The translations under genes were made by a program, and so were the position numbers. Positions 2,189 through 35,232 of a stretch of 64,000 nucleotides of DNA are shown piece after piece. This DNA comes from Microbacterium sp. p3-SID336 (GTDB taxonomy: Bacteria; Actinomycetota; Actinomycetes; Actinomycetales; Microbacteriaceae). Where the stretch lies: the NCBI RefSeq assembly GCF_025143365.1, contig NZ_JALXPE010000001.1, positions 62,001-126,000 on the forward strand. Direction: 5' to 3'. Numbering within the stretch: position 1 is the first letter of the stretch; every line of letters starts with the position of its first letter. The notes beneath the pieces were generated by a model that had not been told where the DNA came from, searched no databases, and worked only from the letters and a program-made list of their open reading frames with translations.

Positions 2189-2190
2189 CC

Positions 2191-2871: not shown

Positions 2872-3131
2872 AGACTTTCGATGAGCTGTTCGCCGAGCTC
2901 AGCGTCAAGGCCGAGACCCGCCCCGAGGGTTCCGGCACGGTCGCGGAGCTCGACGGCGGCGTGCACACGATCGGCAAGAAGATCGTGGAGGAGGCCGCCG
3001 AGGTGTGGATGGCGGCCGAGTACGAGTCCGACGAGGCGGCGGCGGAGGAGATCTCCCAGCTGCTGTACCACCTGCAGGTGATGATGCTCGCGAAGGGCCT
3101 CTCGCTGCAGGACGTCTATCGACATCTGTGA
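2868..3131 (+). CDS. hisE: Phosphoribosyl-ATP pyrophosphatase
   Basis: Second step of histidine synthesis: hydrolyses phosphoribosyl-ATP to phosphoribosyl-AMP. The 87-residue, all-alpha MazG-like protein has the family's acidic metal-binding signature ([13 protein letters not shown] and a later [15 protein letters not shown]). It starts at GTG 2868, overlapping the rpe stop. HisE and HisI are separate proteins here, as is usual in actinobacteria. Confidence 0.95.
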
Positions 3132-23642: not shown

Positions 23643-23680
23643 GTGGCACACAGACCCCGGTGGCGGCGGGGGTCGGGGGA

Positions 23681-23686
23681 TAGGCT
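23681..23686 (+). promoter_or_regulatory. Candidate leaderless -10 box for the DUF885 gene
   Basis: TAGGCT ends 7 nt before ATG 23694, selecting that start over the longer upstream frame. Confidence 0.45.
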
Positions 23687-23693
23687 GAAAGCT

Positions 23694-25370
23694 ATGACTT
23701 CCGCACCCCGCACCCCCTCCGCCATCGACGAGGTCGCCGATGAGTGGGTCGACACGATCGCCGTCCTGGCGCCGACTCTCGGGACCTACATCGGTCGCAC
23801 CGAGGTCAACGACCGCTTCGGCGACCTGAGCCCGGAAGGGCACGAGCAGATCGCCGCCGCCACACGGGCAACCCTCGACAAGCTGTCGGCACTGGAGCCG
23901 GTGGATGCGATCGACGAGGTCACGAAGACCGATCTGAGCGCCGAGCTCCGTCTGGACCTCGAACTGCACGAGGCGAAGTGGCACCTGCGCGACCTCAACG
24001 TGATCGCCTCGGCGGCACAGGACGTCCGGGCGGCGTTCGATCTCATGCCGACGGACACCGCGGAGGACTGGGAGGTGATCTCCACGCGTCTGTCCGCTGT
24101 TCCCGCGGCCCTCCGCGGCTACATCGAGACGCTGCGCACGGGCATCGCCGAGGGCGTCACGCCGGCCCGCCGTCAGGTGGCCGAAGTCGCGACGCAGATC
24201 GACCGCTACATCGCTGATGACGGGTTCTTCGCGGCGTTCGTCGCACACGCCGACCCGAAGGAGGGGCAGCTGCCGGCGTCGCTGGCTCGGGCCCTGGCCG
24301 ACAACTCGGCCGCCGCCCGTGTCGCCTACGGCGAACTGCGCCGCTTCCTCGCGGAGGAGCTGGCGCCGGAGGCGGGGGAGACCGACGCGGTCGGCCGCGA
24401 GCTCTACGCCCTCAACTCCCGTCGCTTCCTGGGCGCCACGATCGACCTCGACGAGACGTACGAGTGGGGTCGCGAAGAGCTCGCCCGCATGGTGGCCGAG
24501 CAGACCGCCATCGCGAACGAGATCCTCCCCGGCGCCTCGGTCGAGGAGGCGGTGGCGCACCTCGAGGCCGACCCGGCGCGCAAGCTCGTGGGCACGGACG
24601 CGCTGCAGCGGTGGATGCAGGAGACGAGCGACCGCGCGGTCGCCGAGCTGGGCGCCTCACACTTCGACATCCCGGAGGCCATCCGCACGCTGGAGTGCAT
24701 GATCGCGCCGACGCAGGAAGGCGGGATCTACTACACGGGCCCCACCGACGACTTCTCCCGCCCCGGCCGGATGTGGTGGTCGGTGCCCGAGGGCGTCACC
24801 GAGTTCGACACCTGGCGGGAGCTCACCACGGTGTACCACGAGGGCGTCCCGGGTCATCACCTGCAGATCGCTCAGGCCGTCTACAACCGCGCCGAGCTCA
24901 ACTCGTGGCGGCGGCTGCTGGCCGGCACCTCGGGTCATGCGGAGGGGTGGGCGCTGTACGCCGAGCGGCTGATGGAGCAGCTCGGCTACCTCGACGACCC
25001 GGCCGACCGCCTGGGCATGCTGGACGGCCAGCGGATGCGGGCTGCGCGAGTCGTGCTCGACATCGGGGTGCACCTGGGCAAGCCGCGCCTCGACGGCGAG
25101 GGGGTGTGGGATGCGGCCTACGCGCTGGACTTCATGCGCCGCAACGTGAACATGTCGGACCAGTTCGTGCAGTTCGAGGTCAACCGCTACCTGGGCTGGC
25201 CGGGGCAAGCGCCGTCGTACAAGGTCGGGCAGCGCATCTGGGAATCTGCCAGGGAGGATTACGCCGCGAAGATGGGCGATGCATTCTCGGAGAAGGACTT
25301 CCACAAGCGGGCTCTCGACCTCGGAGGCGTCGGACTCGACACGCTCCGGTGGGCGCTCAAGGAACTGTAA
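23694..25370 (+). CDS. DUF885 metallopeptidase-like protein; C-terminus replaced by the integrated element
   Basis: A 558-residue protein of the DUF885 family, which has a gluzincin-like zinc motif. HEGVPGHH at about residue 382 supplies the HExxxGH-type ligands, and further conserved segments are SGHAEGWALYAERLM and EVNRYLGWPGQAPSYKVGQ. A peptidase role is inferred. The mobile element enters at 25230-25243, so the last about 41 residues, after the shared QRIWE, are encoded by the element. They match the displaced host tail at 35092-35232 at 30 of 46 positions, including FHKRALDLGGVGLDTLR. The hybrid product therefore looks complete. Confidence 0.88.
   Translation: MTSAPRTPSAIDEVADEWVDTIAVLAPTLGTYIGRTEVNDRFGDLSPEGHEQIAAATRATLDKLSALEPVDAIDEVTKTDLSAELRLDLELHEAKWHLRDLNVIASAAQDVRAAFDLMPTDTAEDWEVISTRLSAVPAALRGYIETLRTGIAEGVTPARRQVAEVATQIDRYIADDGFFAAFVAHADPKEGQLPASLARALADNSAAARVAYGELRRFLAEELAPEAGETDAVGRELYALNSRRFLGATIDLDETYEWGREELARMVAEQTAIANEILPGASVEEAVAHLEADPARKLVGTDALQRWMQETSDRAVAELGASHFDIPEAIRTLECMIAPTQEGGIYYTGPTDDFSRPGRMWWSVPEGVTEFDTWRELTTVYHEGVPGHHLQIAQAVYNRAELNSWRRLLAGTSGHAEGWALYAERLMEQLGYLDDPADRLGMLDGQRMRAARVVLDIGVHLGKPRLDGEGVWDAAYALDFMRRNVNMSDQFVQFEVNRYLGWPGQAPSYKVGQRIWESAREDYAAKMGDAFSEKDFHKRALDLGGVGLDTLRWALKEL
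25230..25243 (+). other. Left attachment core (attL)
   Basis: CAGCGCATCTGGGA, identical to 35092-35105. It lies in frame in the DUF885 gene (Q R I W and first two bases of E). Host sequence lies to the left and element sequence to the right. Serine-integrase crossover normally needs only a central dinucleotide, so the 14-bp identity is the longest shared core, not necessarily the exact exchange point. Confidence 0.85.
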
Positions 25371-25392
25371 GCACCGGAGCGGAGCAGACGCG

Positions 25393-25419
25393 AAAGGAGT
25401 CTCACGCGAGGCTCCTTTT
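25393..25419 (+). terminator. Element-borne terminator for the DUF885 gene
   Basis: Arms AAAGGAGTCTC and GAGGCTCCTTT (one G-U pair) around an ACGC loop, followed by TTTTG. A good intrinsic terminator 22 bp after the hybrid gene's stop, inside the element. Confidence 0.75.
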
Positions 25420-25432
25420 GTGCTCTGACCGT

Positions 25433-25438
25433 GTATAA
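25433..25438 (+). promoter_or_regulatory. Candidate -10 box for the first cargo gene
   Basis: TATAAA about 58 nt before ATG 25496; the gene has AGGAGG at 25482-25487. The AT-rich box contrasts with its surroundings. Confidence 0.3.
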
Positions 25439-25495
25439 ACGTGCGCGACTGTCTACTCCTGGGCCGCGATAGGCGCGACTCAGGAGGCCAGGACA

Positions 25496-25747
25496 ATGCA
25501 GACACTCACGGATGCCATCGCCGCGCACGGCGCTGAGCTCCTAGGGAGCTCCGCCTGGCGATGGCTCGATGAGCTCGAGGCGGAGCGCGCCGCCATCGTT
25601 TCGGAGGCGCTGGTCGTCGCCGGGGTCGATAGCCTCGTGGACTTGACGCTCGCGAGACCGGCTCTCGGTGGTCTCGATGCGGACGAGCTCGAGGCGATGC
25701 TGACGCATCTCCCGGACACGGAGAGGCCCGAAGCTCAAGCCGCCTAG
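25496..25747 (+). CDS. Small element protein of unknown function (83 aa)
   Basis: I do not recognise this family. The 83-residue acidic, leucine-rich protein is predicted helical (AAHGAELLGSSAWRWLDELE, then LDADELEAMLTHLPDTE) with no cysteines and no membrane span. AGGAGG at 25482-25487 gives a good ribosome binding site 8 nt before ATG. First gene inside the left end, read inward. Its size and position would suit an excision or regulatory factor, but no helix-turn-helix is evident. Confidence 0.6.
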   Translation: MQTLTDAIAAHGAELLGSSAWRWLDELEAERAAIVSEALVVAGVDSLVDLTLARPALGGLDADELEAMLTHLPDTERPEAQAA

Positions 25748-25796
25748 GCGGGCGGATCGAACATGACCTAGATGCCCCATCCGCCCTGACGCCAGG

Positions 25797-25843
25797 GTAG
25801 TCGACTGTTCAAGGGGCCTCGTCATGGTCAGCCGTGGCGGGGC
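25797..25843 (+). repeat. Imperfect 47-bp direct repeat, copy 1
   Basis: Matches 28044-28090 at 38 of 47 positions in the same orientation, best at its right half (TGGTCAGCCGTG). The two copies flank the zinc-ribbon, HEPN-like and membrane-protein genes. Confidence 0.55.
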
Positions 25844-25904
25844 CTCCGTCGCGCGTGCGGCGGCACGTCGTCGGCGTCTCTTGACTCGCTGGGAGGAGGC
25901 TCAC

Positions 25905-26390
25905 ATGGCGGTGACGTTCGCATGCCCGAGGTGCGGCCAGTCAGCGCGCATCGTGTCGGGCGGCCACGTCGAGGCGCACGAGGCAACGCCCGGCGAGCCC
26001 TGCACGTACACGAAGACGCCGAGCTCGGGCGGCGTTCGCGACAAGGAGTCCGCCGAGGTGCGGGCGAATCGCGCGGCCCAGCGTCGGGCGGAGGACGCCG
26101 AAAAGGCGGCGGCCAGAGCGGCTCAGAAGGCACGAGCGGCGGAGAGCCGCGAGAAGGCAGAGGCGGCTCGGCTGGAGCAGAAGCGTCGGACGGCGGCGTC
26201 CCGGGTCGAGTGCCCGAGATGCCATGCGCTCGTCCTGCCGTCGAAGATGTCGCCGACAGGTCTGGTCGCGCACACTCGCCCCTCCGGGCGCTGGTGTAAG
26301 GGCGGCGCCGAGCCGTCAGGCAAGCAGGGCAAGGTCAAGCGGAGTGTGTGGCCCGTCTCAGGTGGCCTGCCGGGTCTGGGGCGGCGCTAG
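25905..26390 (+). CDS. Protein with two zinc ribbons around a charged coiled coil
   Basis: A 161-residue protein of unknown function. An N-terminal CPRCGQ zinc-knuckle half and a later Cys in GEPCTYT are followed by a long Ala/Arg/Glu-rich helix (about 45-105), then a second CPRCHALVLPSKMSPTGLVAHT with a closing RWCKGG, so each end could bind one zinc. The basic C-terminus suggests nucleic-acid binding. ATG 25905 is preferred over the frame's first ATG (25824) because GGGAGGAGG precedes it. Confidence 0.65.
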   Translation: MAVTFACPRCGQSARIVSGGHVEAHEATPGEPCTYTKTPSSGGVRDKESAEVRANRAAQRRAEDAEKAAARAAQKARAAESREKAEAARLEQKRRTAASRVECPRCHALVLPSKMSPTGLVAHTRPSGRWCKGGAEPSGKQGKVKRSVWPVSGGLPGLGRR

Positions 26391-26422
26391 CCCCACCTAT
26401 GCGCTGGAAATCCGGCAGGAGC

Positions 26423-27106
26423 TCACAGCCTGAGGCTCCCGCACGAAGGGCAACGCCAGCGTGGGCCTCCGTCGGTATCCGTAGGCGTGAGCTCGACGAA
26501 ACACGCCGGGCAGAGGTCCTCCGGCGTCGAAGGAGCGTACTGCCCGTCGATGAAGTCTCCGCGGGTGAAAAGGACTCCCTCGACCTTGCTGGCGGCCTCC
26601 TCGGCTTCCTCCTCCGTCGCTCCGTTCTCAAGAGCTTGGGCCTTGACCCAGCGGCGGTGCATGAGGGGCTCCCGGGTGTCGCGAACGGGGGTGTTGCGCA
26701 CGTTGGCCGCGTCGAGGACGGCGATGAACCGCGCGAACGCGAAGCCGAGACGGTCGGCAGGAGTCGGGACCTCGGGCTCATCATCGCCGCCGTGGAAGGC
26801 GGAGATGAGGCCGTTGAGCTCGTCCTCCACGAGGTCATAGTCAACGCGATGAGCGGCTCGGTTCCGGATCGCGTTGAGTGAGGCGATGACGGAGGCGTGC
26901 TCGGAGGTCACAGCACCGAAGGCCTGAGCGATCCGCAACTTGACTGCGAATGTGAGCCGGTCGGTGGCGAGCGCGCTCGGATCGTCGGCGCGGAGTTCTA
27001 TGGCGCGGTTGAGGCATCGCTCAACCCGGAGGTGTCCCTTGACAAGGACGCTCAGGGTGTTTCCCTCGCTGAGATGAACTGCGAGCTTCTGGGCGTCTAC
27101 AGGCAT
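26423..27106 (-). CDS. HEPN/MltR-like protein with C-terminal zinc ribbon
   Basis: A 227-residue protein. The N-terminal half is all helical and resembles the MltR/DUF4145 branch of HEPN-like domains: FAVKLRIAQAFGAVTSEH followed by NAIRNRAAH. Arg81-x4-His86 (RNRAAH) is the RX4-6H motif that is catalytic in HEPN ribonucleases. The C-terminus carries CPAC and CPSC, a zinc ribbon of the kind used to recognise nucleic acid. HEPN proteins are common in anti-phage and toxin systems, so a defence RNase is a reasonable inference; MltR-type proteins without RNase activity also exist. No antitoxin partner is obvious. Confidence 0.6.
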   Translation of the reverse strand: MPVDAQKLAVHLSEGNTLSVLVKGHLRVERCLNRAIELRADDPSALATDRLTFAVKLRIAQAFGAVTSEHASVIASLNAIRNRAAHRVDYDLVEDELNGLISAFHGGDDEPEVPTPADRLGFAFARFIAVLDAANVRNTPVRDTREPLMHRRWVKAQALENGATEEEAEEAASKVEGVLFTRGDFIDGQYAPSTPEDLCPACFVELTPTDTDGGPRWRCPSCGSLRL

Positions 27107-27299
27107 GTGTCCATGATGGACGATGTAGACGCCGAAAGGCCTCGCGCCGGAGAGGAACCGGGCGGGGGCCTTCTGGGTTAGGGGGCGTGCTTGACTTGGC
27201 GGGCTGGTTCGTTGACGAGGTGCACCGAGAGATTGGCGACGCCGACTCTGCGGCGATCGTCGCGTCTGTCGCGGCGTGATCGAGCGGGGTGGCCAGCAC

Positions 27300-27305
27300 T
27301 AGCAT
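27300..27305 (+). promoter_or_regulatory. Candidate leaderless -10 box
   Basis: TAGCAT ends 6 nt before ATG 27312. Confidence 0.4.
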
Positions 27306-27311
27306 CGGAGC

Positions 27312-27878
27312 ATGATCTGGGATAGCTGGACGGCAGGGGACTGGGCGGGCATACTGGGTACCATCATCGCCGCCTTCGTCGGCGTTGGCGGCTTGCTCAT
27401 CGTCCTAGGCGTCGAGCGTTCGGGGCGATACGTCGAACGGGTCGACGCGTCCCTCGCCGAGGTCATCGCCGCGCTCGGGCGGCGTGCGGCGGAGCTTGAC
27501 GTTTACACGTCCGAGCTGTTCTCGCTGAACGACTCCCACTATCAACAGGTGATGGTCTCTCAGCGCCGAGACGCGAGGCGAGCGTCCCCCGGCGGCCCGC
27601 TGGACGCCGATCTCCAGGCCGCCGCCGAGGTCGCATGTCTTGCGGCAACGCGACGGCGAGATAGAGCGCCAGTCGAAGCCCTGGCGGCGGCAACGTTCGA
27701 TCTGAAACAGGCAGTGACGCTCTGGCAGATGGAGCGCGCCGGGCGAATCGCCGCCGACGTGCGGCGTTGGCGAACGGGAGAGCTCGACTCTCCGGCGTTC
27801 ATCGTCCGGATGCAGGAGCATCGAGATGGTGCCCGGGCGTCTGGCGAGGCCGCCCTCGCCGCCGAGAACGGTGGCTGA
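27312..27878 (+). CDS. Single-span membrane protein of unknown function (188 aa)
   Basis: Not recognised. One N-terminal transmembrane helix (about residues 12-33, WAGILGTIIAAFVGVGGLLI) precedes a helical cytoplasmic region rich in Ala, Arg and Glu with a possible coiled coil (residues 40-70). No signal peptidase site. TAGCAT 6 nt upstream supports the ATG. It lies next to the HEPN-like gene, divergently transcribed, and could be a membrane partner, but this is only context. Confidence 0.6.
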   Translation: MIWDSWTAGDWAGILGTIIAAFVGVGGLLIVLGVERSGRYVERVDASLAEVIAALGRRAAELDVYTSELFSLNDSHYQQVMVSQRRDARRASPGGPLDADLQAAAEVACLAATRRRDRAPVEALAAATFDLKQAVTLWQMERAGRIAADVRRWRTGELDSPAFIVRMQEHRDGARASGEAALAAENGG

Positions 27879-27960
27879 ACAAGATGCCGGTGAGCGTGGC
27901 GAGTCCGGGGAGTGCGTCGATGAGAAGGCGGGCGATGGTCAGAGCGTCGGTGTTGAGCAT
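27799..27960 (-). CDS. Possible 53-aa membrane peptide antisense to the 27312 gene
   Basis: A short minus-strand frame. It begins MLNTDALTIARLLIDALPG, has one hydrophobic span (about residues 6-29) and a very basic tail SRRRGRPR. TAGACT at 27968-27973 (minus) sits exactly 7 nt before the ATG, the leaderless pattern. It overlaps the 3' end of the opposite gene by 80 bp. It could be a holin-like or toxin-like peptide, or chance. Confidence 0.35.
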   Translation of the reverse strand: MLNTDALTIARLLIDALPGLATLTGILFSHRSRRRGRPRQTPGHHLDAPASGR

Positions 27961-28043
27961 GGCGCGGAGTCTAGGGGCGCTCACGCCAAGGGGACGGGGT
28001 TAGGCGCTCCGGAAGCGAATGAGTGTGACTGGAGAGAGTCGGA

Positions 28044-28090
28044 GTAGTCGAGCGTTCCAGAGACGCCGTCCTGGTCAGCCGTGCCGGGGC
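28044..28090 (+). repeat. Imperfect 47-bp direct repeat, copy 2
   Basis: Second copy of the repeat at 25797-25843 (81% identical, same orientation), in a stretch between 27961 and 28200 where I see no other convincing gene. Confidence 0.55.
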
Positions 28091-28200
28091 AGTCTCGGAC
28101 GACGATGAGGATGGACTGCTCACGCCAGGATTAGGCCGCTAAAACGCCCCTAGCGTAGATCGGAGCGGAACGATTCGCGTTCCCGAGACAAGGAGCCGCA

Positions 28201-28344
28201 ATGACCTACTTGGTCCCCACGCCCGATGCTGGCCTGACCGATCCGTCCCACTCGTGGCGACACCCCGACGGCACGATCACCCCGGCGAGTGACGACGACA
28301 TCGCGCGTCTCGTCGAGACAGACGACGAGCGCACGCTCGGCTGA
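28201..28344 (+). CDS. Small acidic protein (47 aa)
   Basis: Begins MTYLVPTPDAGLTD and ends DDDIARLVETDDERTLG; very acidic, one possible amphipathic helix. AAGGAG about 7 nt before ATG and a strong terminator right after the stop make this short frame credible. Function unknown. Acidic small phage proteins can mimic DNA, but there is no direct support here. Confidence 0.55.
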   Translation: MTYLVPTPDAGLTDPSHSWRHPDGTITPASDDDIARLVETDDERTLG

Positions 28345-28352
28345 AACGCCGC

Positions 28353-28390
28353 AAGGCCCCCGGCCGAAGATGATCCGGTACGGGGGCCTT
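28353..28390. terminator. Bidirectional terminator between the 47-aa gene and the HNH gene
   Basis: Arms AAGGCCCCC (28353-28361) and GGGGGCCTT (28382-28390) with a partly paired loop. It lies 9 bp after the + strand stop and 40 bp after the minus-strand HNH stop, so it can serve both convergent genes. Confidence 0.7.
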
Positions 28391-28429
28391 CTGTGTCGGA
28401 CGTGTGGTTGAAATCGCTGACCGTCTGAA

Positions 28430-28771
28430 TCAGCGGCCCCGGACCTTCTGCCGTTGGACCTGAGCGCGAACGTACTTGGTCGCTCCCCATAAGCCGTTTC
28501 GGGCGGCGGCGGGGTTGGCTCTATGAGCATGGTGGACGAGGTCATGGCACGTCGGGCAGACAGGTACAAGGTCCATGAGGCGCTCCGCTCCCAGGTTCTT
28601 GTATGTGCGGTGGTGCAGATGCATCCCCGGTTTGCGAGGAGCATCGCAGACGTAGCAACCCTTGGGGAGAGCGGATGCCCAGTAGCGCGCGCGAACCTCG
28701 GCCCATGCACGCGAAGCGATGTATTCGCGGTATCCGGCGCGGGAGACCGTCGCGCGGCCCGGGATGCCCAA
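28430..28771 (-). CDS. HNH endonuclease
   Basis: A 113-residue HNH nuclease. The zinc cysteines CYVCDAPR and CPTCHDLVHH bracket the catalytic LHHRTYKNLGAERLMDLV. Small phage HNH enzymes like this often help genome packaging near cos sites, but restriction or homing roles are also possible. The start is TTG 28771 with GGAAGG upstream, formed from the end of the preceding gene, so the two are translationally coupled (3-bp gap). Confidence 0.85.
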   Translation of the reverse strand: MGIPGRATVSRAGYREYIASRAWAEVRARYWASALPKGCYVCDAPRKPGMHLHHRTYKNLGAERLMDLVPVCPTCHDLVHHAHRANPAAARNGLWGATKYVRAQVQRQKVRGR

Positions 28772-28774
28772 CGT

Positions 28775-29224
28775 TCAGCCTTCCCAGTGGGCGCGAACGT
28801 GTGCGGCGTGTTGGCCTCGCACAGTTTCGTTGGCCGCGAGAGTGCGTCGTACCTTCTCTGGGTCGATGGCGAAGCGGAGCGCGTCGAAGCGGCTGTAGTC
28901 GTCTAGCCCTGGCGTCTTGCTGTGCTCGATCGGGTCGAAGCGTTGAGCCCATCTCGTGCCATCCAGCGAGGCCCATGCAGCGCCGACGGACGAAGGCCAG
29001 ACCGATGGTTGCTCTTCTAGGATCGCCGTCGCCTGAGTCCGCAGGTACGAGACTAGGAGCATACAAGCGCCGCACGCCGGGGCGTTCGCCGTCGCCCTCT
29101 CGTTCGCTTCATGTTCTTCCACCGTCGGGAAGGTCGAGCGGGGCCCGGACTCCGCACGTCGATCGCAGAGCGAGCGGCCATCCGGCATCCAGACGTGGAC
29201 GGTCTTGGGGTCCTGGTTAGGCAT
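28775..29224 (-). CDS. Cysteine-containing protein of unknown function (149 aa)
   Basis: The N-terminal region HVWMPDGRSLCDRR with a later ACGACM resembles a small zinc-binding module common in actinobacterial and actinophage proteins. The remainder (SRFDALRFAIDPEKVRRTLA) is helical. Cotranscribed with the HNH gene. The ATG 29224 is supported by TAGCAT 6 nt upstream on the same strand. Confidence 0.6.
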   Translation of the reverse strand: MPNQDPKTVHVWMPDGRSLCDRRAESGPRSTFPTVEEHEANERATANAPACGACMLLVSYLRTQATAILEEQPSVWPSSVGAAWASLDGTRWAQRFDPIEHSKTPGLDDYSRFDALRFAIDPEKVRRTLAANETVRGQHAAHVRAHWEG

Positions 29225-29230
29225 GGCCAG

Positions 29231-29236
29231 ATGCTA
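29231..29236 (-). promoter_or_regulatory. Candidate leaderless -10 box for the 149-aa/HNH operon
   Basis: On the minus strand TAGCAT ends 6 nt before ATG 29224. Confidence 0.4.
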
Positions 29237-29274
29237 TCTCGACGCTCAGACGTCGGGGCGCGCCAAAACAGTAA

Positions 29275-29313
29275 AAGGCCCCCACCGCGCGGAGGAATCC
29301 AGGTGGGGGCCTT
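29275..29313 (-). terminator. Terminator after the HIRAN gene
   Basis: Perfect 12-bp arms (29275-29286 and 29302-29313) with a 15-nt loop, followed on the minus strand by TTTTACTGTTTT. It begins 5 bp after the HIRAN stop. Confidence 0.85.
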
Positions 29314-29318
29314 GGGGC

Positions 29319-29849
29319 TCAGAAGGTGCGGTACAGGTGGCGGAGTATGTCGGAAGGGGCGGAGATGACCTTCGCGGGGTCGGTCGAGATGACCACAGCT
29401 TGCAAGGGCTCGCCCGCGTCAAGACGTTTCGCCAGGCCCCGGGCCATGCCCTTGTTGTAGTGACCGAGCATCTCTCCGCCGACGTGAATCGCCACGGCAT
29501 CGGGGTCGTGGGGGTTATCAGGTTCCCGCACGAGTCCGGCGGGCCCGAGGCTCGCCTTGCCGGTGTAGTAGCGCGTGCCGCGAACCTTGACCCCGAAGAT
29601 ACCGAGCCGACGTAGATAGCGGTTGTCGACGTTGATGAGCTTGCCCGTGGTGTCCTCGGCTAGCCATAGTGCTCCAGCGTGGCGTACGAGGTGTAGCGGA
29701 GGTAGGCCATCGGCACGGGGAGCGAGCAGCTCCGCTTGCCGTTCCGTGGAGAGGTAGAGGCTCTCATATGCCTCATTCTGAGCACTGACAAGCTCCGCGT
29801 GGTAGGTCACGTCGAGAGGACGTCGTGCGTGGGCCTCGCCTGGACTCAC
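29319..29849 (-). CDS. HIRAN-domain protein
   Basis: A 176-residue protein whose C-terminal half (about 83-165) is a HIRAN domain: FGVKVRGTRYYTG, then LVREPDNPHDPDAVAIHVGG, GHYNKGMARGLAKRLDAG. HIRAN domains bind DNA 3' ends or damaged DNA, usually fused to helicases; here the domain is almost alone. The N-terminal part (ESLYLSTERQAELLA) is unrecognised. GTG start. In a mobile element it may sense or protect DNA ends. Confidence 0.8.
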   Translation of the reverse strand: MSPGEAHARRPLDVTYHAELVSAQNEAYESLYLSTERQAELLAPRADGLPPLHLVRHAGALWLAEDTTGKLINVDNRYLRRLGIFGVKVRGTRYYTGKASLGPAGLVREPDNPHDPDAVAIHVGGEMLGHYNKGMARGLAKRLDAGEPLQAVVISTDPAKVISAPSDILRHLYRTF

Positions 29850-29927
29850 GGACGCGATGCCGAGAGCACCTCGCGAATCGAGTTGAGAAGACCCATGCGG
29901 TCATCCTAGGGTCACGCCGCGAGTCAA

Positions 29928-30257
29928 TCATGCGGCAACCTCTCGCCGGAGACTAGCGAACGGATCCTCGTGATCTTCGAGGGCCTCGGACAGGGCCGTC
30001 GCGGCGCAGTCGAACGAAGCTGTTGCGGCGTCGATGACGGCGAGCGAGGAGAGCACCTGGGCACGGAGTGCAAGGCGCGAGGGCGCGGTCGCGAGCTCGC
30101 CCGTGGGGTCGCTTACGCCGAGCGTGGTCGTCATGCGTGCGCCGGGCGACTTGTCCCACTGGGCGGCGGAGCTCGCTCTGAGGAGGTCGACGAGGCGGAG
30201 GACGCTGGCGGCGTGCGCGGTGGTCAGGTCGCGGAGCGTATGGTTGGCGGCGATCAT
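29928..30257 (-). CDS. Conserved actinophage-type protein (109 aa), unknown function
   Basis: Helical protein with the segment MTTTLGVSDPTGELAT followed by RLALRAQVL, a pattern I associate with small proteins of actinophages; I give no family name. Its ATG lacks a ribosome binding site and overlaps the stop of a 10-codon frame at 30254-30286 that has a strong AAGGAG, suggesting translational coupling. Confidence 0.6.
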   Translation of the reverse strand: MIAANHTLRDLTTAHAASVLRLVDLLRASSAAQWDKSPGARMTTTLGVSDPTGELATAPSRLALRAQVLSSLAVIDAATASFDCAATALSEALEDHEDPFASLRREVAA

Positions 30258-30286
30258 CGGATCGTTCGCTGGGTAGTGGTTGTCAT
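30254..30286 (-). CDS. Ten-codon leader peptide frame
   Basis: Encodes MTTTTQRTIR. It has AAGGAG 5 nt before ATG 30286 and its TGA overlaps the ATG of the 109-aa gene. Reinitiation would explain how that gene is translated. Confidence 0.4.
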   Translation of the reverse strand: MTTTTQRTIR

Positions 30287-30468
30287 GGTGTCTCCTTGGT
30301 GATCGCGGGCAGTCGCACGCTGGTGGTGAGGGGTAGAAGTCTGGGAACAGTCAGGAGGGAGGCTCACGGCTGGCGAACCCTGGAACCCGCGCGGGCAGGG
30401 AGACGCTATGCCGCTCCGGGCTTCCGTCGGCGGGGCTGGTGAGAGTCCCTCCCCAGGGTCAGCGCCGG

Positions 30469-30474
30469 TACGAT
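30469..30474 (+). promoter_or_regulatory. Candidate leaderless -10 box
   Basis: TACGAT ends 6 nt before ATG 30481 and selects this start over the frame's earlier ATG at 30439. Confidence 0.4.
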
Positions 30475-30480
30475 CTGGGC

Positions 30481-31086
30481 ATGCTGACTATCTCGGTGGA
30501 GTACCGGTCATGGCCCGGATACGGCGAGCACGCGGAGCCCGTACGTGTGGACCTCGAAGGGGAACCACATGAGTCGTTCGCTGAGGTGCTCACCGCGCGG
30601 TTGTACCCTGACAGCGATTACGCCGGTCACGTCGAGGTGGAACTCCCTGACGTCGAGGTAGGGACATTCGCCCCTATTCCTGAGGACGTGACGATGGAAC
30701 AGGCGCACGCGTTCGCTGGCGGCGAGGTGCTCACGATAAGCCGAGCGGGTCGAGGCGGCGGTCTGATCGCAACTCTCGCTGAGTGGGTTGGTGTAGGGCT
30801 GACCTTATCTGGCGTCTGGGACCTTCTCCGACGCGGCGGCGACACCTATGTCAATGCCGTCTATCGGCGTCAGCGCCAGGAGGCGAGGCGTTGGCTTGTT
30901 GCCGGTGCTGACACCGACCCTCATATGGAGTTGATCCAGTGGGTGAAGGAGCATCCTGGTTGGTCGCTCGGGGACGTGGAGGTGGCCTTCGGGCTGGGCG
31001 TCGCGGACGCCGCCGCTCTGCTTCGGCGAACGGGGTACGTCCCGGACGACGATATGGGCTACTACTGGCGCGAGGTGGCGGAATGA
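30481..31086 (+). CDS. Unknown element protein (201 aa)
   Basis: Not recognised. The N-terminal part (residues 1-90) is beta-rich and acidic (MLTISVEYRSWPGYGEHAEP). A hydrophobic stretch GLIATLAEWVGVGLTLSGVW (about 98-117) could be a membrane helix, and the C-terminal part VEVAFGLGVADAAALLRRTGYV resembles a small winged or helix-turn-helix-like fold. It is alone on the + strand among minus-strand genes. Confidence 0.6.
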   Translation: MLTISVEYRSWPGYGEHAEPVRVDLEGEPHESFAEVLTARLYPDSDYAGHVEVELPDVEVGTFAPIPEDVTMEQAHAFAGGEVLTISRAGRGGGLIATLAEWVGVGLTLSGVWDLLRRGGDTYVNAVYRRQRQEARRWLVAGADTDPHMELIQWVKEHPGWSLGDVEVAFGLGVADAAALLRRTGYVPDDDMGYYWREVAE

Positions 31087-31109
31087 GTACCTGCTAAGCG
31101 TGAGAGAGG

Positions 31110-31151
31110 GGCCCGCCGCTCGTCCAAGGAGACGGAAGTGAGCGGCGGGCC
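31110..31151. terminator. Perfect 12-bp stem-loop
   Basis: GGCCCGCCGCTC (31110-31121) pairs with GAGCGGCGGGCC (31140-31151), 18-nt loop, no U-tract. It lies 23 bp after the 30481-31086 stop. The stretch 31152-31340 shows nothing else I can support. Confidence 0.55.
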
Positions 31152-31340
31152 GGGGAGACCACGAACGTGCTCCATGCACTCCACCCGGGTACATAGTCCG
31201 CTGAGCGCTCATCCCCCCCAGGATCGCCGGATGCTCACCCCACGCGGTTCTTACTCGCTGGGTCCACTCTCGTCGGTGGAAAGGAGAACGCCGACGGAGC
31301 TCACTGGCGCACCGGCCACGGCGCGTCAATGAGGAAGAGG

Positions 31341-31370
31341 CTGGCGAGGCTCTCCAAGGAGCGTCGCCAG
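31341..31370 (-). terminator. Hairpin at the end of the capsid transcript
   Basis: CTGGCGA/TCGCCAG outer arms with an inner GCTC/GAGC pair and a pyrimidine-rich run after it on the minus strand. It lies 14 bp after the stop of the 108-aa gene. Confidence 0.5.
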
Positions 31371-31384
31371 GAGCTAGTGGTTGG

Positions 31385-31711
31385 TCAGTCTCGCCGAGAC
31401 AGGCGGAGGCCGTGCTCGGCCAAGACTCGGGTGAGCTCGCGAACGGTGGCGTCCGATGGGCGGGCGAGGACGATTTGGCCGGCGTGCGGGTAGAACGCCG
31501 TGAGGGCGGCGGAGGTGGCGAGCTCGATGGCGTCGTCGGGGATGCGCCAGATGTTGCGGGCGAGGCCACTGGCGGCGGTGTACTCGCCTCGGATCGCCTC
31601 GTATGCCATGCCCTGCCCGAAGTCGATAAGGGTGTCGTCGGTGACGGCGGCGAAGACGTTGAGGACGTCGTGGTCGCGGACGAGGGAGAGGAAGCGTGCG
31701 CGAGGTGACAT
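31385..31711 (-). CDS. Unknown protein downstream of the capsid gene (108 aa)
   Basis: Mixed alpha/beta protein with no cysteines or membrane span (SLVRDHDVLNVFAAVTDDTL, then IVLARPSDATVRELTRVLAE). It follows the capsid gene by 86 bp on the same strand, where phages often place head-completion genes. I cannot assign it to such a family. Confidence 0.55.
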   Translation of the reverse strand: MSPRARFLSLVRDHDVLNVFAAVTDDTLIDFGQGMAYEAIRGEYTAASGLARNIWRIPDDAIELATSAALTAFYPHAGQIVLARPSDATVRELTRVLAEHGLRLSRRD

Positions 31712-31797
31712 GAGGGTCCGATCTGAGAGGTAGTGGGGAGCGGGGCCCCGCGTCGTGTAAACGCTGGGGCCTCGCGGTGACGCCGGAGCGTCGAGGA

Positions 31798-32736
31798 TTA
31801 CGCCGAGGTGGAGACCGTGACGACGGCCCCGCCCTCGACGGGGGTGACCGTCGCGGAGTGGGCGTCGTAGTCGCGCTCGACGTCGTAGAGCGGGCTGATG
31901 CCCGTTCCGACGAACACCGATGCGACGGAGCGCTCGGTCAGGTGGGTGGCGTCGTAGTCGCGGAGGTATCGGACGGCGAGGCCGTCCTTGACCGTGACGT
32001 TGCCGAACGGGACGCCGTTGGGCACCTCGGGGGCGACGGTCGCGACGTAGAGTCCCGTCTGGGTCGTGAAGACGATCTCGTCGTCCTCGATACTTCGTGC
32101 CGTCTCGGCGACCTCGAAGCCCGCGATGCGACCGGCAGAGCCGGAGCGGAGGGCGTTGGCGTCGCCGGTCTTGGCGAAGTCCAGCGCGCCGGAGAGGAGG
32201 AGGTCGTCGATGACCGCGCCGCCGACGAAGGCGACGAGGTCGGCGTTGGCGACATCGACGCCCTTGGCGCGAAGCGCGCGGCGGCCCTTGACGAAGACGT
32301 CGGTGGGCTTGGCGGCGTCGTAGCCGGTCGGCTCGGCGCTGGCCGCGATTCCCGAGAGGAGACCGGCGAGGGCGTTGTCGATGCCGTCGGCGATGCTCTC
32401 CGCCTGGGGGCGGAGGACCTGCTTGGAGAAGTCGGTGAGGTCGAGCTTGAGCTCTGCGTCGCCGATCTTGACCGCGCTAACGAGGTTGGTCGAGAGGTCG
32501 ACCGAAGTGCGCTTCTCGATGAGCTCGTCGAAGACGACGGCGGTGGTCGTGTCGCGGAGGCTCCGCGCGCGGGCGGTGAGCGCCGACGGGATGCGGAGGT
32601 ACGCCTTGCCGCCTGTGCCCGGGGCGAAGTCCGCCTCGGTGTAGCGGCGGACGTGGCGGGCGATGTCGAGCTTGCTCGTGACGAGGCCGAGGGTAACTTC
32701 TCCGGCCTGCTCGGGGGTGTAAAGGTTGAATGCCAT
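31798..32736 (-). CDS. Phage major capsid protein, P22 coat-like
   Basis: A 312-residue protein with the layout of the P22-coat-type capsid proteins common in actinophages: N-terminal FNLYTPEQAGEVTLGLV, then GGKAYLRIPSALTARARSL, VDLSTNLVSAVKIGDAELKL, VLRPQAESIADGIDNALAG, and the late AGFEVAETARSIEDDEI and VRYLRDYDAT. AGGAGAG precedes the ATG. No scaffold, portal, protease or terminase gene is nearby, so it either acts with a helper phage or is a relic. The reading frame is intact. Confidence 0.8.
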   Translation of the reverse strand: MAFNLYTPEQAGEVTLGLVTSKLDIARHVRRYTEADFAPGTGGKAYLRIPSALTARARSLRDTTTAVVFDELIEKRTSVDLSTNLVSAVKIGDAELKLDLTDFSKQVLRPQAESIADGIDNALAGLLSGIAASAEPTGYDAAKPTDVFVKGRRALRAKGVDVANADLVAFVGGAVIDDLLLSGALDFAKTGDANALRSGSAGRIAGFEVAETARSIEDDEIVFTTQTGLYVATVAPEVPNGVPFGNVTVKDGLAVRYLRDYDATHLTERSVASVFVGTGISPLYDVERDYDAHSATVTPVEGGAVVTVSTSA

Positions 32737-32836
32737 GAGGCTCTCCTATGGAGTAGTGCGCCGGGATGGCGCGATGAGTGCGGAGCCGCCTTGCGGTTGT
32801 GGCGCGCGTCGACCTTGCGGCGTGCACCGGAGATGC

Positions 32837-33289
32837 TCAGCGCCGTCCAGACGCGCTAGAAGCGCGCCCGTGGGCGTCGGGCGGTAGAGGGCCTGGAGAG
32901 GCCCGGAGAGCGTCGGCTAGCCGCGTTGACCTTGCGCAGCGGCGGGACGAGCTCAGGGTCCGTCGTGCCTCGTGGGGAGCGACCCCGGGGAGACGATGCG
33001 GACGGCGCGCTCGGGGCGCGTCTTGACGTGGAGGAGACCGCCTGGAGCGGCGATAGTGCCCGCCGTTAAACGGCGAGGAGGCGCACGGTCGCGCGGGCGA
33101 CCTGCTCCAGCTTGAACATGTCGCCGGAGCCGAGAGCGGCGTTGGCCTAGCGGCGAGGCGCTGGCGCTGGGCAAGGAGCCGAGCGCGGTAGAGCTTGGTG
33201 CGGCACGAGACGGAGCACGTGCTGGCCGCCGGGTGCGCAGCGGCGAAGCGGCTTCCGCAGTGCGCGCAGAGAAGCGCGAGAGATGTCAT
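32837..33289 (-). pseudogene. Small zinc-finger reading frame running into apparently frame-broken sequence
   Basis: The first about 48 codons look real: AGGAG 6 nt before ATG 33289, then CAHCGSRF with CSVSCRTKLYRAR, the C-x2-C/C-x3-C finger typical of actinobacterial proteins. Beyond that the frame becomes Ser/Arg/Pro-rich antiframe-like sequence. Gene-like codon choice instead appears in two other frames: a 17-codon piece at 33066-33119 (MFKLEQVARATVRLLAV) and a piece ending at 32953 (IAAPGGLLHVKTRPERAV). Either one gene has suffered frameshifts or several tiny genes overlap. No other gene is seen between the capsid gene and here. Confidence 0.35.
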
Positions 33290-33305
33290 GGTCGACTCCT
33301 AGATG

Positions 33306-33319
33306 GTGTCGTGCGACAC
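33306..33319. promoter_or_regulatory. Operator-like palindrome before the capsid-side transcript
   Basis: GTGTCG-TG-CGACAC, a perfect 14-bp dyad. On the minus strand it directly follows a TACCTT box (33320-33325) and precedes the AGGAG of the 33289 start, the position expected for a repressor operator. Confidence 0.45.
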
Positions 33320-33337
33320 AAGGTAGGCAAGAAAAAC

Positions 33338-33365
33338 GCCCCCGGGCGAGGACCTGGCCGGGGGC
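33338..33365 (-). terminator. Terminator downstream of the integrase
   Basis: Arms GCCCCCGG and CCGGGGGC followed on the minus strand by GTTTTTCTTG. It separates integrase transcription from the capsid-side genes. Confidence 0.75.
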
Positions 33366-33408
33366 ATAGAGATAAAACTCTCTTCATTGAGTAGACCGCC
33401 TGGGTGCC

Positions 33409-33547
33409 CTCGCGATAAGGAAGCGAGCGCGGTGGCGCTCGGAGTGACGGAATGACGGATAAACCGTCACTTCCTATTCCTTTAGGAGTAGTTCTCTCTC
33501 TCGAAGGCGGAATAGGAAGTGACGATTTGAACCGTCACTCCGTCACT
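33409..33547. repeat. Cluster of nested inverted repeats
   Basis: Between the integrase stop and its terminator. Hairpin CGAGCGC/GCGCTCG at 33424-33441; outer arms 33443-33458 and 33532-33547 (15 of 16 paired); inner perfect 16-bp arms 33465-33480 and 33509-33524. TGACGG or its complement recurs in all four arms. Nothing coding is apparent on + here. It could be a replication or packaging site, a binding array, or a structured 3' RNA. Confidence 0.7.
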
Positions 33548-33589
33548 ACCGGCGCCACGCTGGCCCCAACGGGCTCGTCCCGGCGACGG

Positions 33590-35077
33590 CTAGCCCGCCG
33601 CATCGGCTCCCGCGTTCAGGTGCTCGGCGACGAGGTGCCAGACGTAGACGCGGGAGAGGCCGCGACCCGGCGAGACGGTCACGCCCAGAAGCTGAGAGAG
33701 AGCCGCGCGCTGGCGGTCGAGGTCGAGCTCGGAGATGCGCTGAGCGACTACGTCGCGGAGCTCCCAGAAGTCGGAGCCCGGAGTCCGCTTAGCCGTCTCG
33801 ATAAGAAGATCGCGAGCGAGGGTCGCCAGGGACGCTGAGGACGTCCGAGAACCGCGGGCGGCGTCGAGGGCGGCCTCTACCTCTCGCCGCTCGTCACGGA
33901 GCGCCACGAGGCGGGAGCGGGCGGCCTGGGGCGAGATGAGCTCGTCGTCGCGGTCGGCCATAGTGGCCGCCGTCGCGCGTTCGATGCGTTCCAGGTTGGC
34001 GACGAGCGGGCCAGCGGACTCGGGCTCGTCGCCCGCCAAGGCGGAAGGGTCGGTGGTGAGGAGTGCGAGGGCCATCTCACGGCGAAGGTGCTCGTCGAGG
34101 AGCTCCGCCTTGATGCTCGCGTGGGGTCGGTCGTCGAGGAAACGACCCCCTGAGCGGGTCAGGGTGCGAATCTGGCAGGTGTAGTAGCCAGAGTGAACGT
34201 TGAGGACGTTAGGGCATCCCTCGACCCCGCATGAGGCGAGGCCGGAGGAGAGATGTCGGCGGCCAGGCCCCGCCAAGGTTCGGCGCTTCTCGTCGGTCAG
34301 GATGGCGCGGACCTCCTCGGCGAGCTCGGGGGAGACGATGGGTGTAATGCGGTCGGAAGGGACAGCCGTGCCGTCGACGGGCACGAGGCCGCCGTAGGAA
34401 GGGTTGAGGAGCATGTAGCGGACGCGCGCGCCTCCCCAGCCCTTGCCGGTCCCGGGCGGGATGTTGTCGGCAAGGAGCCCGGCGGCGACGGAGCGGAGGG
34501 AGGAGCCGTTGGCGATCTGCTCGAAGCATCGGCGGACGATGGCCGCCTCGTCCTCGCGCGGCGTCTCGCCGTCGAGCTCGTAGCCGTACCGGCGTCGGCC
34601 AGCGTGGGGGCGTCCAGCCGCCGCTCGTCGCTCATTGGCTCGGCGGTGGCGGGCCCCCTTGCGCTCGATCTCGGAGCGGGCGACGGCGGCCTTCACTCGG
34701 GCGAACATGCGCCCGCCATCGGTTGAGAGGTCGGCCTCCCCGTTCGCCGTGACGATGACGAGCCCGGTCTCCTCGGCGGCGTCGATCCAGTCCTCTAGCT
34801 GGCGCGGCTGGCGCGTGAGGCGGTCGAGGTCGTAGCAGACGATGGCGTCGAAGGCCCCGCGCTGGTAGTCCTCGACCATGCGGTCGTAGGAGGGGCGGCG
34901 GACGTCGCGCTTGGACGCGGAGACGGAGTTGTCGACGTAGGGCTCCCCGGCCTGGGTCCAGCCGCGTTGCGCGATGATCGCGAGGCAGTCCTCTAGCTGG
35001 CGCTCGACGGCGGCCTCATCGCCGGTACGGTCGAGGGATATGCGGAGGTAGATGGCGGCTCGCTTGGTCACCGTCAT
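33590..35077 (-). CDS. Large serine recombinase (integrase)
   Basis: A 495-residue site-specific recombinase. The resolvase domain begins AAIYLRISLDRTGDE with catalytic Ser14 and has the nearby DLDRLTRQPRQLEDWID; the recombinase domain shows GRPHAGRRRYGYEL and ANGSSLRSVAAGL; a zinc ribbon is seen in SCGVEGCPNVLNVHSGYYTC; a coiled coil (about 365-410) follows. The ATG at 35077 lies 15 bp from the right core repeat, as expected for an integrase next to its attP. It would catalyse integration into the DUF885 gene; a directionality factor is not recognised. Confidence 0.92.
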   Translation of the reverse strand: MTVTKRAAIYLRISLDRTGDEAAVERQLEDCLAIIAQRGWTQAGEPYVDNSVSASKRDVRRPSYDRMVEDYQRGAFDAIVCYDLDRLTRQPRQLEDWIDAAEETGLVIVTANGEADLSTDGGRMFARVKAAVARSEIERKGARHRRANERRAAAGRPHAGRRRYGYELDGETPREDEAAIVRRCFEQIANGSSLRSVAAGLLADNIPPGTGKGWGGARVRYMLLNPSYGGLVPVDGTAVPSDRITPIVSPELAEEVRAILTDEKRRTLAGPGRRHLSSGLASCGVEGCPNVLNVHSGYYTCQIRTLTRSGGRFLDDRPHASIKAELLDEHLRREMALALLTTDPSALAGDEPESAGPLVANLERIERATAATMADRDDELISPQAARSRLVALRDERREVEAALDAARGSRTSSASLATLARDLLIETAKRTPGSDFWELRDVVAQRISELDLDRQRAALSQLLGVTVSPGRGLSRVYVWHLVAEHLNAGADAAG

Positions 35078-35091
35078 ATCGCAAGTTACGT

Positions 35092-35105
35092 CAGCGCATC
35101 TGGGA
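35092..35105 (+). other. Right attachment core (attR)
   Basis: CAGCGCATCTGGGA, identical to 25230-25243. Element to the left, host DUF885 sequence in frame to the right. Confidence 0.85.
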
Positions 35106-35232
35106 GCAGGTCCGCGATGCGGTCCGCGACGCCGAGGGCGACGCGTTCTCGTTCAAGCAGTTCCATAAGCGCGCGCTGGACCTCGGCGGCGTCGGTCTGG
35201 ACACGCTCCGCAGCACGCTGCTGCCGCGCTGA
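35092..35232 (+). pseudogene. Orphaned original 3' end of the DUF885 gene
   Basis: In + frame it reads QRIWEQVRDAVRDAEGDAFS, then FHKRALDLGGVGLDTLRSTLLPR and TGA at 35230. It is the natural C-terminus displaced by the insertion, with no start codon or promoter of its own. Excision at the core would rejoin it to codon 512 of the upstream gene. Confidence 0.88.

What the first reader, a model, noticed from the sequence alone, without database searches (positions are those of the whole stretch)
25230..35232. Serine-integrase element that swaps the C-terminus of a DUF885 peptidase gene
A 14-bp direct repeat (25230-25243, 35092-35105) bounds about 9.86 kb. The left repeat lies inside an intact DUF885 gene. 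Beyond the right repeat, the same reading frame continues as QRIWEQVRD and ends FHKRALDLGGVGLDTLR plus a short tail and stop: an orphan copy of the same C-terminus. The element-supplied and displaced tails match at 30 of 46 positions but have diverged widely at DNA level, so the element carries a captured, homologous 3' end and its own terminator. Gene-restoring insertion is familiar for tyrosine integrases in tRNA genes; for a large serine recombinase in a peptidase gene it looks unusual. It also gives the host a chimeric peptidase whose tail depends on the lysogenic state.
Basis: partly seen in the sequence, partly recalled or inferred. Interest (0 to 1): 0.8.

Follow-up and report, generated by a model that had tools for sequence, protein, structure and literature searches.

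The report
Microbacterium phage satellite in DUF885 gene
A 9.9-kb mobile DNA element sits in a conserved bacterial gene and supplies that gene with a replacement ending; it looks like a parasite of phages related to Microbacterium phage SuMoo, sharing their landing site and packaging signal and carrying its own capsid gene, so how a phage parasite tracks its host phage could be tested directly.

Summary
A 14-bp repeat at 25230 and 35092 bounds a 9,862-bp insert with a large serine integrase. Empty-site relatives carry the DUF885 gene with the displaced tail; a second genome (G029) is occupied at the same codons. Three of 50,697 phage records (SuMoo, Percival, Gretchen) carry the DUF885 3' end beside a related integrase: tail capture belongs to phage attP sites.

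It lacks recognisable terminase, portal, scaffold and tail genes but carries a cos site matching SuMoo's joined ends (84%), a major capsid homologue, a capsid-linked protein matched in none of 50,697 phage records, and SuMoo's repeated motif. Int-capsid-partner-cos recurs in three other Microbacterium genomes with other integrases, two with restriction-modification cargo. Best reading: a phage satellite of SuMoo-like phages, working like cos-type SaPIs, perhaps excised with the helper's directionality factor, which it lacks. Unlike PICIs as defined, it appears to use its helper's attachment site. Nothing was tested at the bench. New variant of a known kind.

The parts
23643..25370 (+). DUF885 gene as it stands now: host 5' part plus element-supplied 3' end
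   Evidence: ORF; PF05960 over residues 44-570; the rows listed are 75-93% identical
25230..25243 (.). left copy of the 14-bp core (attL)
25244..25370 (+). element-supplied DUF885 3' end with stop
   Evidence: window 25230-25358 is 86% identical to SuMoo 40522-40394; 3 of 50,697 phage records carry this 3' end
25389..25422 (.). terminator-like hairpin behind the supplied tail
   Evidence: -23.8 kcal/mol, 0 of 200 shuffles as good; SuMoo has a hairpin in the same place
25496..25747 (+). small ORF, 83 aa, unknown
   Evidence: codon-position GC; no PHROG
25824..26390 (+). 188-aa zinc-ribbon-like ORF, cargo
   Evidence: PF12760 below its cut-off
26423..27106 (-). 227-aa ORF with C-terminal zinc ribbon, cargo of unknown function
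   Evidence: PF13453 just below cut-off; phrog_5483 unknown; no PADLOC hit
27312..27878 (+). 188-aa ORF, unknown, cargo
   Evidence: no Pfam hit
28430..28771 (-). HNH endonuclease-like ORF
   Evidence: phrog_8060 (unknown) E 3.8e-12 and five HNH families at E 3e-6 to 2e-4
28775..29224 (-). 149-aa ORF, unknown
   Evidence: no Pfam hit
29319..29849 (-). HIRAN-domain ORF
   Evidence: PF08797 E 8.3e-10
29928..30257 (-). 109-aa ORF, distant relative of SuMoo gp52
   Evidence: 41% over 49 aa; phrog_21236
30358..30460 (-). cos site like that of SuMoo (joined genome ends)
   Evidence: 84% over 105 columns, E 1e-26; the phage matches shown lie at record ends
31385..31711 (-). capsid-linked all-helical protein 'Y', 108 aa
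   Evidence: no match in 50,697 phage records at E 1e-5; homologues beside the capsid gene in L159, L160, L163; model pLDDT 87.6
31798..32736 (-). major capsid protein homologue, 312 aa
   Evidence: phrog_283 E 5.8e-30; PF11651 E 5.9e-8; 38% to SuMoo gp6
32837..33289 (-). ORF whose first ~50 residues resemble a zinc-ribbon stretch also found ahead of the capsid genes of L159, L160 and L163; the rest is doubtful
   Evidence: by eye from the translations
33030..33045 (-). copy 1 of SuMoo repeat CCAGGCGGTCTCCTCC
   Evidence: exact
33388..33403 (-). copy 2 of the repeat (two mismatches to the 16-letter form, none to the 15-letter form)
33441..33553 (.). palindromic region shared with SuMoo intergenic DNA
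   Evidence: (72.7-77%), sequences
33590..35077 (-). large serine integrase, 495 aa
   Evidence: PF00239 and PF07508; phrog_95 E 3.3e-76; 86.3% identical to SuMoo gp64 in a full-length alignment
35092..35105 (.). right copy of the 14-bp core (attR)
35092..35232 (+). displaced original 3' end of the DUF885 gene
   Evidence: same tail type in empty-site relatives

Best explanation
The 9,862-bp insert is an integrated phage satellite of SuMoo-like Microbacterium siphophages. Shown by sequence: its serine integrase and attP are of the phages' kind; integration falls in the Gln-Arg-Ile-Trp codons near the 3' end of a conserved DUF885 gene, and the attP flank, as in three phages, encodes a full replacement 3' end with a hairpin behind it; it carries a phage-type cos site, a major capsid homologue, a capsid-linked protein Y and copies of SuMoo's repeat, but no recognisable terminase, portal, scaffold, tail, polymerase or directionality factor. 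Inferred: on infection by a SuMoo-like helper, the helper's directionality factor (annotated as gp42 in SuMoo) turns the integrase to excision, helper functions replicate the element and switch on the capsid operon, the helper terminase cuts at its cos, and its capsid protein redirects assembly to small heads or spoils helper heads, as Ccm does in SaPIbov5. While integrated it presumably occupies the helper's own attachment site.
For: Site. Integrase 86.3% to SuMoo. cos E 1e-26 to the SuMoo join (84%), 1e-20 Mabodamaca (78%), 3e-15 Honk (88% over 60), 2e-10 Percival, 1e-7 Caron, same strand as int and capsid; matches shown in the whole phage collection lie at record ends. Repeat within two mismatches: 3 in the element (expected 0.0), 2 of them exact; 13 in SuMoo (0.4), 13 in Mabodamaca (1.0); 1 in 53.7 kb of window flank (0.6); expectations from 5 simulated sequences each. 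Of 19 SuMoo proteins tried, only integrase, capsid and a gp52 fragment match the element; the RDF again not. Same int-capsid-Y-cos order in L159, L160, L163; L159 and L160 share the capsid-Y block at 81% DNA identity although their integrases differ. Capsids of the window, L159 and L160 group (94/93) apart from 7 phage or prophage capsids (95/100). Element versus SuMoo tail: dN/dS 0.21; beyond the attP half-site 8.8 nonsynonymous against 14.3 expected, p 0.009.
Against: No excision, packaging or transfer was observed. No replication gene or repressor was recognised. L163's capsid does not join the satellite group, the 94/93 support is just under the tool's star, and the tool warned that long branches meet there. 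The repeat is absent (two mismatches) from L159, L160 and L163. The cos match in those three is short (E 4e-11 to 4e-4 to Percival) and lacks the right-hand half-motif; the two prophages L161 and L162 lack that half too. The integrase C-terminal part, where directionality factors are thought to act (recalled), is only 67-73% identical to SuMoo's, so that SuMoo's factor would serve is not assured. No SuMoo-like prophage was seen in a DUF885 gene. In bacterial genomes the closest integrase found was only 61-62% identical. Some tail pairs show no significant synonymous excess (element versus Percival p 0.19).
Confidence: 0.8

Rival explanations
1. A decayed SuMoo-like prophage that lost most of its genome by deletion and kept attL, attR, integrase, capsid gene and cos.
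For: Integrase, att flank and cos are 84-86% like SuMoo; a capsid gene remains.
Against: Order is int-capsid-Y-cos, whereas SuMoo is int-...-cos-terminases-portal-scaffold-capsid, so simple deletion cannot give it. The capsid is only 38% like SuMoo's while the integrase is 86%. Protein Y has no match in 50,697 phage records. The same module recurs in three genomes with other integrases.
Confidence: 0.12
2. An island that moves by its own integrase but is not packaged; the phage-like pieces are a chance mosaic.
For: Integrase and both att sites look complete; the HIRAN, HNH and zinc-ribbon ORFs are not phage-specific by name.
Against: Integrase, capsid, Y and a cos core keep one order and orientation in four elements; a chance cos match at E 1e-26 is unlikely.
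Confidence: 0.05
3. The tail exchange itself is the selected function: the element alters the DUF885 protein to the benefit of the lysogen or the phage.
For: 16 of 46 tail residues change; the five element-borne tails share a Ser-Glu-Lys that 0 of 34 host tails show.
Against: The synonymous excess between element and SuMoo tails and the well kept GGVGLDTL block point to preserving the gene, not changing it. The shared residues also fit one old capture.
Confidence: 0.03

Closest known systems
cos-type SaPIs (SaPIbov4/SaPIbov5, ccm)
   Same: Integrated satellite with the helper's cos site and an HK97-type homologue of the helper capsid protein (passages of PMC5052747).
   Different: SaPI helpers are staphylococcal, and PICIs are described with a replication module and a master regulator (passages of PMC6092414); here a serine integrase, no recognised replication module, and apparently the helper's own site.
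Mycobacterium candidate PICIs (integrase plus capsid regions)
   Same: Defined there as phage-like regions with integration machinery and a capsid gene; some have serine integrases; one uses an attB also listed for prophages (passages of PMC10654092).
   Different: In the passages read no helper cos or regulatory repeat and no tail capture is described for them.
Vibrio cholerae PLE
   Same: Large serine integrase; excision directed by a phage-encoded directionality factor (abstract of PMC6002521); no such factor found in this element.
   Different: Helper is a lytic phage; a PLE protein remodels the helper capsid (abstract start of PMC10945586 in a listing; its name TcaP and scaffold nature recalled), not a capsid homologue.
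Streptomyces satellites MulchRoom and MiniFlayer
   Same: Actinobacterial satellites with capsid genes (results part 1 and section 17 of PMC10690885).
   Different: They carry terminases, portal and scaffold; MulchRoom has a tyrosine integrase; helpers are 130-134-kb phages presumed virulent.
SCC cassettes in rlmH and dnaJ2 prophages of Bifidobacterium
   Same: Integration at a gene 3' end; dnaJ2 is said to be reconstructed (passages of PMC6109161); that rlmH stays intact is recalled.
   Different: Other genes; dnaJ2 prophages use tyrosine integrases; the SCC repeat is 18 bp (passage of PMC8407400), here about 130 bp of coding DNA are replaced by a diverged copy.

Membership tests
large serine integrase element | resolvase plus recombinase domains in an open integrase gene | tested here: met
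   PF00239 and PF07508, 495-aa ORF
large serine integrase element | short identical core at both borders and an uninterrupted site in relatives | tested here: met
   14 bp; 3 of 3 relatives aligned are contiguous, 34 of 34 loci read through
PICI (criteria in PMC6092414) | attachment site never occupied by prophages | tested here: inconclusive
   SuMoo, Percival and Gretchen carry the same tail-bearing kind of attP, which speaks against it; no prophage at the site was itself seen
PICI (criteria in PMC6092414) | no phage structural or lytic genes | tested here: not met
   major capsid homologue present; the same paper notes capsid homologues in SaPIbov5 and PmCI172
PICI (criteria in PMC6092414) | integrase, replication module and master regulator | tested here: inconclusive
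   integrase only; no replication gene or repressor recognised, several ORFs unknown
PICI (criteria in PMC6092414) | size typically around 12-15 kb | tested here: not met
   9,862 bp; a 10.3-kb cos SaPI is known (passage of PMC5052747)
PICI (criteria in PMC6092414) | phage-dependent induction and packaging | not testable with these tools
   needs infection experiments
cos-type SaPI | helper cos site in the element | tested here: met
   84% to the SuMoo join, E 1e-26; that SuMoo is the helper is inferred
cos-type SaPI | capsid-protein homologue that redirects helper capsid size | tested here: inconclusive
   homologue present; effect on capsid size not testable
cos-type SaPI | common descent with the staphylococcal SaPI backbone | not tested
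   SaPI genes were not compared
capsid-forming PICI / MulchRoom-type satellite | own packaging and capsid module (terminase, portal, scaffold, capsid) | tested here: not met
   of the SuMoo morphogenesis proteins tried only the capsid matches; MulchRoom proteins themselves were not compared
Mycobacterium candidate PICI | integrase plus major capsid gene in one region (definition in PMC10654092) | tested here: met
PLE | excision directed by a phage-encoded directionality factor | tested here: inconclusive
   no SuMoo gp42 or Percival gp41 homologue in the element; dependence not shown
defective prophage of the SuMoo group | gene order a subset of the phage order | tested here: not met
   capsid lies between int and cos

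The most novel reading that the evidence does not exclude
A satellite lineage that has taken over its helper's whole entry and exit address: the same integrase kind, the same attachment site with the same captured host-gene ending, the helper's cos and the helper's regulatory repeat, but no directionality factor of its own, so that helper infection alone triggers its excision and, while resident, it denies the helper its usual place to lysogenise. Its capsid gene and protein Y would make satellite-specific heads.
Probability: 0.3. Interest if true: 0.7.

Novelty: new variant of a known kind. Interest (0 to 1): 0.55.

Why it matters
PICIs are described as using attachment sites never occupied by prophages (passages of PMC6092414); this element appears to use the site of its presumed helper, which would make competition for lysogeny between phage and satellite testable. 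SuMoo and its recorded isolation host, M. foliorum NRRL B-24224, give a ready system. The recurring int-capsid-Y-cos module, with restriction-modification genes in two relatives, points to a family of Microbacterium satellites that carry defence genes. The att flank shows, in phage genomes, that a captured host coding end is kept as an open frame; two records list it as an orphan hypothetical gene (Percival gp76, Gretchen gp57).

Tried and rejected
Led nowhere: viral-contig scan with the capsid (12 pattern stretches, none confirmed) and with a cos pattern (0 matches); Y in 349 family genomes (0 matches; the tool warns that an empty answer without a known positive shows nothing, and whether the known carriers were among them is not shown); PADLOC on eight element ORFs (none); structure search with the Y model (9 hits at E 10 or less, none at 0.001). 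Orphan-looking tails in G162 and G312 proved to be contiguous genes, so only G029 counts as a second occupied site. Genomes with two or more tail matches (358 of 361 genomes have a match) were otherwise not examined, so no occupancy rate is claimed. tblastx of the G029 region against SuMoo gave thousands of uninterpretable matches and was not used. DUF885 tails were sought near the integrases of all 60 loci L001-L060, with none found, so tail capture is not general for this integrase family. Of the 13 capsid-bearing genomes only five were followed; the other eight (31-38% identity, four of them short matches at E about 1e-4 or weaker) were not. In one search minus-strand positions for the bracketed pattern are three bases off; coordinates here come from the 16-letter pattern and the sequence printed. 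The two element distances at the end use the uncorrected positions, and its list of SuMoo genes was partial. The p-values were worked out from the rounded figures. One search gives the integrase as 83% identical to SuMoo (tblastn over 98%), as 86%.

Considered and rejected: decayed prophage (gene order, capsid divergence, recurrence), unpackaged island, tail swap as the purpose.
Full report
OBSERVATION. The two tails agree at 30 of 46 residues and differ at 47 of 138 bases.

EMPTY SITE. No genome is held for the window, so relatives were reached through an integrase scan and handle G003. DUF885 relatives are in 196 of 198 sampled genomes of the genus of G003. Window flanks align without a break across the site in 3 of 3 relatives tried (L137, L138, L139), the right flank starting at or near the displaced tail. 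In 34 of the 34 other DUF885 loci that the tools handed over (L068-L102 without L094; L071, L073 and L074 come from other genera by their parent records) the gene reads through GQR[IL]W into a tail of host type.

A SECOND OCCUPIED SITE. In G029 the gene ends in an element-type tail and the displaced host tail follows about 1.48 kb later. The longest frame of the insert is 445 codons, and none of the G029 integrase matches listed lies there. Two further orphan-looking tails (G162, G312) proved contiguous.

PHAGES CARRY THE TAIL. tblastn of the tail finds 3 of 50,697 phage records at E 0.01: SuMoo, Percival, Gretchen, each with the tail in antisense just upstream of a serine integrase, 83%, 66% and 67% identical to the element's by tblastn. 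Caron, UtzChips and Barnstormer, with integrases 68-69% identical, lack it. The five element-borne tails (window, SuMoo, Percival, Gretchen, G029; Percival and Gretchen differ by one base) have Ser-Glu-Lys where 0 of 34 host tails do; this fits one old capture. Element against SuMoo gives dN/dS 0.21 (host tail pairs 0.11-0.15); beyond the attP half-site 8.8 nonsynonymous changes against 14.3 expected, p 0.009. The other five pairs range from p 0.011 to 0.19, element versus Percival being the weakest. Both the element and SuMoo place a strong hairpin behind the stop. Among the attP sequences of the element, SuMoo, Percival and Gretchen the unbroken run shared with the host core is ATCTGG, the Ile-Trp codons; the exact crossover is inferred. 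In bacterial genomes the closest integrase was only 61-62% identical (51 loci; 188 of 366 genomes matched, the best row 61%), and none of the 60 loci L001-L060 has a DUF885 tail.

WHAT THE ELEMENT IS. Between the repeats lie an integrase, a capsid homologue, an HNH-like ORF, a HIRAN-domain ORF and several unknowns. Of 19 SuMoo proteins tried against it only the integrase (86.6%), the capsid (39%) and a fragment of gp52 match; both terminases, portal, scaffold, adaptor, major tail, tape measure, lysin, helicase, polymerase and directionality factor do not (directionality factor again). The reverse comparison, all element frames of 40 codons or more against the whole SuMoo genome, adds the att-flank tail, frames overlapping these genes, and a few very short matches. 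At 30358-30460, in the strand of integrase and capsid, lies a match to the joined ends of SuMoo (84%, E 1e-26), Mabodamaca (78%), Honk, Percival and Caron; in the whole phage collection 3 of 50,697 records match at E 0.01 and the places shown lie at record ends. SuMoo's repeated motif CCAGGCGGTCT[AC]CTC occurs, within two mismatches, 13 times in SuMoo and 13 in Mabodamaca (expected 0.4 and 1.0 from five simulated sequences each), 4 in Percival (0.8), 3 in the element (0.0, two exact) and 1 in 53.7 kb of window flank (0.6). Of 10 plus-strand SuMoo copies checked against a partial gene list, 7 lie 41-94 bp ahead of a gene (one a tRNA), 3 do not. In the element the two exact copies lie about 100 bp ahead of the small ORF and about 290 bp ahead of the capsid gene. 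That the motif is an operator or promoter element is inferred.

A FAMILY. The capsid matches 13 of 361 genus genomes at E 0.001. Stretches around five of these 13 were fetched; the rest were not followed. Two (L161, L162) are SuMoo-like prophages with large terminase and portal. Three (L159, L160, L163) show no terminase or portal to SuMoo's proteins in the 20 kb fetched but have integrase, capsid and a homologue of Y in one order, followed in the same orientation by a CCCGGTGCGGCATAGCG cos core. L159 and L160 share the capsid-Y block at 81% DNA identity although their integrases differ. The right-hand half of the SuMoo cos motif is missing from these three, and also from the prophages L161 and L162. 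Y has no match in 50,697 phage records at E 1e-5 and eight close relatives (79-93%) in the large protein set. L159 carries a methylase and a type III-like restriction subunit, L163 a type ISP/IIG-like restriction enzyme, L160 a tape-measure-like protein and a head-tail adaptor. In a tree of 14 capsids those of the window, L159 and L160 group (94/93) apart from the seven SuMoo-group capsids (95/100); L163 is unresolved and a long-branch warning was given.

MECHANISM. Shown: site, tail capture, absence of recognisable morphogenetic genes other than the capsid, cos, repeats. Inferred: helper-directed excision (no directionality factor found in the element; SuMoo annotates one), helper-terminase packaging, capsid redirection, site competition. 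Models exist: SaPIbov5 has a helper cos site and Ccm, a capsid homologue needed for small heads that blocks the helper (passages of PMC5052747); PLE's serine integrase uses a phage-encoded directionality factor (abstract of PMC6002521). Five copies of 9,862 bp make 49.3 kb, close to SuMoo's 49,192; multimer packaging in full heads, as suggested for EcCICFT073 (passage of PMC6092414), is therefore an alternative to small heads.

RELATION TO THE KNOWN. By the PICI criteria in PMC6092414 (passages) the element has a structural gene, is smaller than usual, and probably fails 'site never occupied by prophages', though no prophage was seen there; it is not filed as a PICI, though it looks built like a cos SaPI. 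It meets the loose definition of candidate PICIs used for Mycobacterium (passages of PMC10654092). A search for phage satellite, Microbacterium and integrase returned one paper, on Streptomyces; the papers listed by searches (all hits; 10 of 15 hits) include none with a Microbacterium satellite in its title or abstract start. The library lacks most subscription papers, so absence from print is not claimed.

VERDICT.

Noticed in passing
L134 (reverse strand positions about 1551-3040), genome G029: A 1.48-kb insert with an element-type DUF885 tail on one side and the displaced host tail on the other, holding one long ORF (445-codon frame) and no integrase match: a possible non-autonomous cassette of the same site.
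   Followed up: partly
L160 14166-17765, genome G321: A satellite-like element that also carries an 822-aa tape-measure-like protein and a head-tail adaptor: possibly sets its own tail length.
   Followed up: partly
L163 8320-18997 (genome G165) and L159 8593-19870 (genome G283): L163's element lies between T2SSF and T2SSE genes (tad-like secretion); L159's flank and integrase are 73% alike at DNA level. They carry different restriction-modification cargo.
   Followed up: partly
phage records MH271308 (gp76) and OK040779 (gp57): Minus-strand 'hypothetical protein' genes that overlap the captured DUF885 3' end in attP.
   Followed up: yes
window 33441-33553; L133 42117-42229 and 20332-20437: A palindromic ~110-bp region shared by element and SuMoo intergenic DNA, two places in SuMoo; function unknown.
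   Followed up: no
window 26423-27106: ORF with an RNxxxH-like stretch (IRNRAAH, reminiscent of HEPN RNases, recalled) and a C-terminal zinc ribbon; possible defence cargo, no PADLOC hit.
   Followed up: no
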